Of a stretch of 48,256 bases of DNA, positions 12,449 through 12,632 are shown piece by piece; the stretch's first letter is position 1, and each line of letters begins with the position of its first letter. The position numbers were made by a program, and so were the translations under genes. Origin of the DNA: Bacteroidota bacterium. GTDB lineage: Bacteria; Bacteroidota; Bacteroidia; Flavobacteriales; Flavobacteriaceae. The DNA lies in contig JAQCBK010000008.1 of the NCBI GenBank assembly GCA_027621505.1, forward strand, positions 1 through 48,256, read 5' to 3'. The notes under the pieces are model-generated. The model was not told the origin of the DNA and did no database searches. It saw only the letters and a list, made by a program, of their open reading frames with translations.

Positions 12449-12478
12449 AAAAAAAATGCGAGCCCATCGGCTCGCATT
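12449..12478 (-). terminator. Intrinsic terminator of the short-ORF unit
   Basis: A perfect 10-bp stem AATGCGAGCC / GGCTCGCATT with a 4-nt loop, followed on the minus strand by eight T. It starts 21 nt after the stop of the 20-codon ORF. On the plus strand the trailing bases (TTGCTTT) are poor, so it works mainly for minus-strand transcripts and would also end NhaP read-through. Confidence 0.88.
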
Positions 12479-12499
12479 TGCTTTATAGATAAGGATGAT

Positions 12500-12562
12500 T
12501 CAGAACAAAATACGGGTGGGTATCTGCTGTCCTAAATTCCTTAAATTACATTCGTAAGACAT
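12500..12562 (-). CDS. 20-residue small ORF with strong Shine-Dalgarno
   Basis: ATG to TGA gives the peptide MSYECNLRNLGQQIPTRILF. It is preceded by AAGGAGGTG ending 4 nt before the ATG, an optimal Shine-Dalgarno layout. A candidate promoter lies 62 nt upstream, a small hairpin stands in the leader, and a textbook terminator follows 21 nt after the stop. I recognise no family. There is no signal peptide or membrane segment; the composition is polar with one Cys. It could be a functional micro-peptide, a leader or sensor peptide, or the translated part of a regulatory RNA. It lies 92 nt downstream of the NhaP gene on the same strand, so co-transcription with NhaP is possible. Confidence 0.6.
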   Translation of the reverse strand: MSYECNLRNLGQQIPTRILF

Positions 12563-12566
12563 TTGA

Positions 12567-12575
12567 CACCTCCTT
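12567..12575 (-). promoter_or_regulatory. Near-complete Shine-Dalgarno sequence
   Basis: AAGGAGGTG is complementary to nine consecutive bases of the usual 16S 3' end, with 4 nt to the ATG of the 20-codon ORF. No other start in this window has anything comparable; most have A-rich leaders, and fabH has a weaker AAGGAAGTGA. Confidence 0.7.
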
Positions 12576-12594
12576 TCTACATTAGTTAAACATC

Positions 12595-12608
12595 GCTGTT
12601 GTCACAGC
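12595..12608 (-). other. Small leader hairpin before the strong SD
   Basis: GCTGT-GACA-ACAGC forms a 5-bp stem with a tetraloop in the RNA leader, 20 nt before the SD. It is too short to be convincing alone but adds structure to the putative leader RNA. Confidence 0.35.
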
Positions 12609-12624
12609 ATTAACAACTCAATTA

Positions 12625-12632
12625 CAAATATA
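12625..12632 (-). promoter_or_regulatory. Candidate promoter -7 box TATATTTG
   Basis: An exact match to TAnnTTTG on the minus strand, just after the NhaP stop codon. Initiation about 7 nt downstream would give an RNA of roughly 165-170 nt ending at the terminator. No good -33 TTG was found at the expected spacing. Confidence 0.45.

What the first reader, a model, noticed from the sequence alone, without database searches (positions are those of the whole stretch)
12449..12632. Stand-alone mini-transcript: promoter, 20-codon ORF and perfect terminator
Between the NhaP and GT2 genes, the minus strand holds in order an exact TATATTTG box, a small hairpin, a very strong ribosome-binding site, a 20-codon ORF (MSYECNLRNLGQQIPTRILF) and a 10-bp perfect terminator with eight U. 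All parts fit in about 170 nt. I recognise no family for the peptide, and the unit looks like a dedicated short RNA. It may be a micro-protein, a leader or sensor peptide, or an undescribed flavobacterial RNA element.
Basis: partly seen in the sequence, partly recalled or inferred. Interest (0 to 1): 0.72.

Follow-up and report, generated by a model that had tools for sequence, protein, structure and literature searches.

The report
Shape-shifting mini-mRNA of marine flavobacteria
A short stand-alone RNA with a 20-codon gene and an extremely strong ribosome-docking site is conserved in small-genome marine flavobacteria, a group thought to use such docking sites at essentially one other gene, so it may be read only by a special form of the ribosome.

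Summary
The minus strand at 12632-12449 holds a TATATTTG box, a hairpin, AGAAAGGAGGUGU, a 20-codon ORF and a terminator. Of 72 elements examined (window included), 71 keep the start codon and 69 of those have a 19-21 aa ORF. Terminator and ORF-closing stem covary; swapping ORF-hairpin halves between distant relatives costs 8-10 kcal/mol. The element stays where nhaP is not next to it, and in seven loci both neighbours lie on the opposite strand, so it is an independent unit. Rfam has no match.

Its Shine-Dalgarno (SD) matches the 13-nt 16S tail seen in two element-bearing relatives: 13 nt in 46 of 72 elements, 12 in 20. Flavobacteria hide that tail with bS21, and a published survey found typically one extended-SD gene, rpsU (PMC9976891). 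Best explanation: a mini-mRNA read by bS21-less ribosomes, with an SD-masking hairpin competing with the ORF hairpin. The RNA family is shown; transcription, translation, the switch, bS21 dependence and purpose (ribosome sensor/decoy or micropeptide) are inferred.

The parts
12625..12632 (-). TATATTTG, -7 type box of the flavobacterial primary sigma factor (TAnnTTTG)
   Evidence: box present in 56 of 70 elements, 49 of them 14-15 nt before the element; consensus from PMC9723704, passages
12595..12608 (-). 5' hairpin P1, GCUGU-GACA-ACAGC
   Evidence: 99.1% of cells paired; CTGTGACAACAG occurs once in each of 18 element-bearing genomes searched
12566..12578 (-). extended Shine-Dalgarno AGAAAGGAGGUGU, complement of the 16S 3' tail
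   Evidence: 16S ends of G633 and G637; duplex -21.3 to -16.8 kcal/mol in 70 elements; 13 nt matched in 46 of 72, 12 in 20, 9-11 in 6
12500..12562 (-). 20-codon ORF MSYECNLRNLGQQIPTRILF and stop TGA
   Evidence: 19-21 aa in 69 of 71 elements; other two frames carry a stop in 137 of 142 cases
12519..12570 (-). early (SD- and AUG-masking) hairpin: GGUGUC 12570-12565 with GAUACC 12524-12519, UGUCUU 12561-12556 with AGGACA 12533-12528
   Evidence: 91.8% of cells paired, 10 two-sided changes vs 4.8 (3 of 500) but percentage paired not above shuffles (59 of 500); exchange test +1.8 to +2.6 kcal/mol in distant pairs
12490..12543 (-). late hairpin of codons 7-20, closed by UAAGGA 12543-12538 with UCCUUA 12495-12490
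   Evidence: mean z -3.84, 65 of 68 below -2; closing stem 12 two-sided changes vs 4.3, 0 of 500; exchange test +8.1 to +9.9 kcal/mol in distant pairs
12449..12479 (-). intrinsic terminator with GAUG loop and eight U
   Evidence: stem covaries, 99.8% of cells paired; GATGG invariant in 67 aligned elements

Best explanation
A stand-alone structured mini-mRNA of about 170 nt. RNA synthesis starts just after the TAnnTTTG box. While the ORF is being made, GGUGUC...UGUCUU pairs with AGGACA..GAUACC, masking the SD and start codon. When the end of the ORF and UCCUUA emerge, codons 7-20 fold into their own hairpin and the SD becomes more accessible; synthesis stops at the terminator. The SD can pair with the whole 16S tail. 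In this group the tail is held in a pocket by bS21-bS18-bS6, so the mini-mRNA should be engaged mainly by 30S subunits that lack bS21, as published for rpsU. They translate about 20 codons, melt the late hairpin and leave. The likely purpose is to sense or absorb bS21-less ribosomes beside the rpsU feedback loop, with or without a role for the peptide. Shown here: conserved promoter-like box, SD, ORF, hairpins and terminator, autonomy from neighbours, single copy in the genomes searched. Inferred: transcription, translation, folding order, bS21 dependence, purpose.
For: Conservation in 72 elements; ORF length kept; covariation of P1, closing stem and terminator, 137 two-sided changes vs 39.7 +/- 6.5, 0 of 500; late hairpin z and exchange test; independence of neighbours; SD:tail duplex mean -20.7 kcal/mol in 70 elements; rpsU of the same genomes has the same kind of SD in 14 of 18, and in the window's genome GAAAGGAGGTG before an ATG occurs only at rpsU and here; published mechanism for rpsU (PMC9976891: abstract, section 32, passages).
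Against: No expression data. The 16S tail of the window's genome was not found in its assembly; only three of the searched genomes showed one. Six of 72 elements have only 9-11 matching nt. The early hairpin is weakly supported statistically (mean z -2.04, only 37 of 68 below -2) and the predicted gain in SD openness is modest (0.20 to 0.37); the SD is still mostly paired in the full element (0.35). Three relatives (G081, G261, G065) have no rpsU SD but keep the element's, so a strict link to rpsU control is not shown. The peptide shows some purifying selection, which a pure decoy does not need.
Confidence: 0.5

Rival explanations
1. A micropeptide gene: the 20-aa product has a function of its own, and the RNA folds merely time or limit its synthesis.
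For: ORF kept in 69 of 71; synonymous changes above a simple expectation (163 vs 113.6 of 413); P17, Q14 and the last residue L/F are common.
Against: 64 distinct peptides of 71; many residues vary freely, and much of what is kept lies in paired RNA; no Pfam match.
Confidence: 0.27
2. A trans-acting small RNA that base-pairs with mRNAs; the ORF is incidental or makes it dual-function.
For: Invariant P1 loop and GAUG terminator loop; stand-alone gene with terminator.
Against: Strictly kept ORF length, start and optimally placed SD. Targets were not searched for.
Confidence: 0.13
3. A type I toxin mRNA: a small toxic peptide held back by nascent hairpins and an antisense RNA.
For: Metastable SD-masking hairpins are known from such mRNAs (PMC6733600, abstract).
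Against: The peptide is not a hydrophobic membrane peptide (read by eye); no antisense promoter box was recognised by eye; single copy in 18 genomes searched.
Confidence: 0.05
4. A leader peptide or attenuator that controls the gene downstream, or a 3' part of nhaP.
For: It starts 36-81 nt after the nhaP match in 56 of 72 elements.
Against: Downstream genes differ and can be convergent; the element remains where nhaP is not upstream; in seven loci both neighbours are on the opposite strand.
Confidence: 0.03

Closest known systems
rpsU (bS21) mRNA of Flavobacteriales, autoregulated through bS21-less ribosomes (PMC9976891; abstract, section 32 and passages read)
   Same: Extended SD of 9-13 bp with the 16S tail, same energy range (about -20 kcal/mol), TAnnTTTG-type promoter seen upstream of both
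   Different: No ribosomal protein; about 20 codons; SD inside competing hairpins; own terminator; bS21 dependence untested
AapA-type type I toxin mRNA with metastable SD-masking hairpins (PMC6733600; abstract read)
   Same: Nascent hairpin that hides the SD, ORF strand taking part in folding, small stand-alone gene
   Different: No antitoxin RNA recognised, peptide not of membrane-toxin type, weak rather than strong evidence for the masking hairpin
uORF and sORF motifs of structured-RNA surveys (PMC11109978; passages read)
   Same: Conserved start, stop and SD within a structured, terminator-ended motif
   Different: Not upstream of a consistent main ORF; no Flavobacteria term occurs in that paper's main text
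Flavo-1 (RF01705) and 6S-flavo (RF01685) RNAs (table passage of PMC2864571)
   Same: Bacteroidetes structured RNAs
   Different: Neither, nor any other Rfam family, matched at gathering score in the window or 13 relatives

Membership tests
Extended-SD mRNA read by bS21-less ribosomes (rpsU type) | 9-13 bp SD:16S-tail pairing, below about -13 kcal/mol | tested here: met
   -21.3 to -16.8 in 70 elements; 12-13 nt matched in 66 of 72; tail seen in G633, G637, G263 only
Extended-SD mRNA read by bS21-less ribosomes (rpsU type) | Higher initiation when bS21 is absent | not testable with these tools
   needs reporter or toeprint assays
Extended-SD mRNA read by bS21-less ribosomes (rpsU type) | Host keeps bS21 and its extended-SD rpsU | tested here: inconclusive
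   bS21 in 19 of 21 genomes; extended rpsU SD in 14 of 18 read, weak in 1, absent in 3; a further rpsU (G250) was not extracted
Type I toxin mRNA | Hydrophobic toxic peptide | tested here: not met
   sequences of 71 ORFs, judged by eye; toxicity not testable
Type I toxin mRNA | Antisense antitoxin RNA | not tested
   only a look by eye for a box on the other strand
Type I toxin mRNA | Nascent SD-masking hairpin | tested here: inconclusive
   present but weakly supported
Cis-regulatory leader peptide / uORF | Consistent regulated gene downstream on the same strand | tested here: not met
   (20 loci plus four read in detail)
Any Rfam 15 family | Match at gathering score | tested here: not met
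   0 in the window and 0 in 13 relatives; best below threshold rliI, 23.4 of 45 bits, E 0.00029

The most novel reading that the evidence does not exclude
A ribosome-composition sensor made of RNA: a dedicated, self-timed decoy mRNA that captures only 30S subunits with an exposed 16S tail, uses a throw-away 20-codon ORF to hold and release them, and so buffers the pool of specialised bS21-less ribosomes in small-genome marine flavobacteria.
Probability: 0.3. Interest if true: 0.92.

Novelty: new variant of a known kind. Interest (0 to 1): 0.77.

Why it matters
A published survey concluded that SD-dependent control in Flavobacteriales is limited to rpsU; as described it counted genes (PMC9976891, section 32), so a 20-codon ORF could escape it. 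This family is a non-rpsU carrier of a full-length SD, found in 9 of 237 sampled genera of the window's family and in loci with another neighbourhood and a distinct peptide type. It would make specialised ribosomes testable with a natural 170-nt reporter, and it couples that SD to a two-state fold of SD, start codon and ORF. Its hosts have assemblies of about 1.2-2.5 Mb (many incomplete), and keeping the element there argues for a function.

Tried and rejected
Rfam on the window, on the locus at a loose threshold and on 13 relatives: nothing at gathering score; rliI (23.4 bits, E 0.00029) and L20_leader (21.7 bits, E 0.041) were below gathering and taken as chance, which was not tested further. 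Pfam for the peptide: none. Phage origin: pattern absent from viral contigs. rRNA complementarity of parts other than the SD: 8-9 nt matches only, taken as chance. Pairing of the SD with UCCUU: 95.5% of cells but no covariation, whereas UCCUU covaries with codons 7-9, so it was rejected as the main partner; it is not excluded as a further state. Alignment A1 mixed orientations and was replaced by A2. Model R1 over 395 order genomes: the own genome at 179.5 bits, 30 others at 40.6 bits or less (E 2.4e-5 and weaker), taken as chance and not inspected; only seven candidates a genome were scored, so absence elsewhere is not proven. The test with altered anti-SD lineages (Chryseobacterium type) was not run: no element was recognised in the order draw. 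A DNA-operator reading of CTGTGACAACAG was considered; one site per genome in 18 element-bearing genomes and G-U pairs in 19 of 66 at its outer pair speak against it. Rows dropped: L089 (start codon lost) from ORF counts; L083, L089, L074, L090, L078 from alignment A5 (67 of 72 kept); four elements from the folding counts (68 of 72); eight of 80 pattern loci without the element and three truncated elements; 24 weak matches below 30 bits, many of them on the other strand. One search reported 93 stretches but listed 80 loci. My note 3 says 20 of 22; the recount is 21 of 22. My notes call the loci 'pelagic'; that is recalled or read from titles, not tested.

Full report
The observation. The RNA folds at -53.1 kcal/mol, z -4.58, with 0 of 200 shuffles as stable.

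It is a family. A DNA search of 249 family genomes gave matches in 72; besides the window's own genome, eight were judged real by alignment, the rest of those listed being mostly short matches. A pattern built on the 5' hairpin and SD found elements of this form in 21 of 22 same-genus genomes; G266 has two, the second at a contig end. A scan of GTDB genomes reported 93 stretches and listed 80 loci; 72 of the 80 match the covariance model at 55 bits or more, 69 full length and 3 cut off. Their titles are mostly Flavobacteriaceae, Flavobacteriales or Bacteroidetes bins and single cells. With the window, L005 and L012 this makes 72 elements. In an even draw 17 of 397 family genomes, from 9 of 237 genera, carry it; in an order-wide draw of 395, only the window's own genome scored strongly. 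Only a few candidates per genome were scored, so absence is not proven. No viral contig has the pattern. CTGTGACAACAG occurs exactly once in each of 18 element-bearing genomes.

It stands alone. An nhaP match ends 36-81 nt before the element in 56 of 72. Of the other 16, two have too little upstream sequence. Of the remaining 14, six lie after a riboflavin synthase gene (L082, L112, L101, L130, L140, L152), which is the gene before nhaP in the window. Seven (L148, L126, L091, L149, L135, L107, L123) have both neighbours on the opposite strand, and L128 has other neighbours (names recalled). So it cannot depend on nhaP and is not a leader of a fixed next gene. TAnnTTTG lies within 45 nt upstream in 56 of 70, 14-15 nt before the element in 49; the seven opposite-strand loci have TATATTCAT instead.

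The ORF. Of 71 elements with an intact start, 69 have 19-21 codons; the exceptions are L078 (stop lost, 25 aa) and L074 (Ns, 43 aa). The same span read in the two other frames has a stop in 137 of 142 cases. Within the ORF, alignment A5 has 182 gap runs of 3 columns and one of 1; A3 shows also 23 runs of 2 near the stop. There are 64 distinct peptides of 71. Among 103 near pairs 163 of 413 single changes are synonymous, 113.6 expected; RNA pairing confounds this.

The RNA folds. P1, the closing stem of codons 7-20 and the terminator keep 97.3% of cells paired with 137 two-sided changes against 39.7 +/- 6.5 in shuffles (0 of 500); shuffles ignore kinship, but slid controls are far lower too. 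GATGG of the terminator loop is invariant while its stem changes. The hairpin of codons 7-20 has mean z -3.84, 65 of 68 below -2; exchanging its halves costs 8.1-9.9 kcal/mol in the more distant pairs and 0.25 in near-identical ones. A second hairpin, GGUGUC..UGUCUU with AGGACA..GAUACC, competes for the same ORF strand and masks SD and AUG. It is paired in 91.8% of cells, with 10 two-sided changes against 4.8 (3 of 500), but its percentage paired is not above shuffles (59 of 500); its mean z is -2.04, 37 of 68 below -2; exchange costs 1.8-2.6 kcal/mol. Folding prefixes raises the mean chance that the SD core is unpaired from 0.20 (to codon 18) to 0.37 (stop+16) and 0.35 (full), higher at stop+16 in 61 of 68. 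A switch is thus supported but modest. SD with UCCUU pairing does not covary.

The SD. In two element-bearing genomes (G633, G637) the 16S gene ends ...GGCTGGAACACCTCCTTTCTA; G263 shows GGCTGGAACACCTCCTTTCT. The other genomes searched, the window's included, showed no such end with the patterns used. AGAAAGGAGGUGU is the 13-nt complement: 13 nt matched in 46 of 72 elements, 12 in 20, 9-11 in 6; energies -21.3 to -16.8, mean -20.7 kcal/mol, in 70. Of 18 rpsU upstream regions read, 14 reach -16.8 or better, one -9.9 (G052) and three have none (G081, G261, G065), though their elements keep an SD. In the window's genome GAAAGGAGG before an ATG occurs six times, followed by TG only at rpsU and here. 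In 397 family genomes GAAAGGAGGTGT before ATG occurs at 23 places: 11 elements, 2 rpsU, 2 copies of a 41-aa ORF and 8 other sites.

Mechanism. McNutt et al. (PMC9976891; abstract, section 32, passages) report that bS21, bS18 and bS6 sequester the 16S tail in Bacteroidia, that ribosomes lacking bS21 initiate faster on an extended SD, and that Flavobacteriales typically have one gene with such an SD, rpsU. The element meets the SD criterion, so such ribosomes are its most likely readers; this is an inference. Masachis et al. (PMC6733600, abstract) describe metastable SD-masking hairpins in a toxin mRNA, the closest precedent for the fold logic. I therefore propose a self-timed mini-mRNA for bS21-less ribosomes; whether it senses or absorbs them or makes a useful peptide is open.

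Novelty. Rfam and Pfam have no match. Literature listings and passages of PMC5069720, PMC11109978, PMC9723704, PMC7247131 and PMC2864571 showed no description of this element. This covers only the open-access library held; the F. psychrophilum small RNAs of PMC9723704 were not compared by sequence, and the ocean small-RNA paper of Shi et al. 2009, seen only as a reference, was not read.

Noticed in passing
L269 (G143:C1:4164513) and L289 (G711:C37:12184): In two other family genera an extended SD (GAAAGGAGGTGT) precedes a 41-aa ORF, MAKDSEGRKYNRIPGYTKKVGGKTIKVKPHVRSNRSDSKGK in L269: another non-rpsU carrier of a strong SD.
   Followed up: no
rpsU of G081 (L201), G261 (L208), G065 (L215): rpsU has no SD there (-1.5 to -0.8 kcal/mol), although the element keeps one: a natural separation of the two.
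   Followed up: partly
L089 7246-7414; L078 3546-3705: One element has lost its start codon and one its stop codon while the rest of the RNA is kept: natural variants or sequencing errors.
   Followed up: no
G266 (L070, L071); L129 and L132 (both UBA11891): Two elements in one assembly: in G266 the second sits at a contig end; in UBA11891 the two encode different peptide types. Could be true copies or mixed bins.
   Followed up: no
window 12465-12468 and relatives: The terminator loop GAUG and the following G are invariant while the stem covaries; why a terminator loop should be fixed is unexplained.
   Followed up: no
L148, L126, L091, L149, L135, L107, L123 upstream: In this group the box is TATATTCAT instead of TAnnTTTG at the same place: possibly another sigma factor.
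   Followed up: no
L274 (G125:C1:3687967): A 337-aa ORF also begins after GAAAGGAGGTGT; its start looks recombinase-like by eye only.
   Followed up: no
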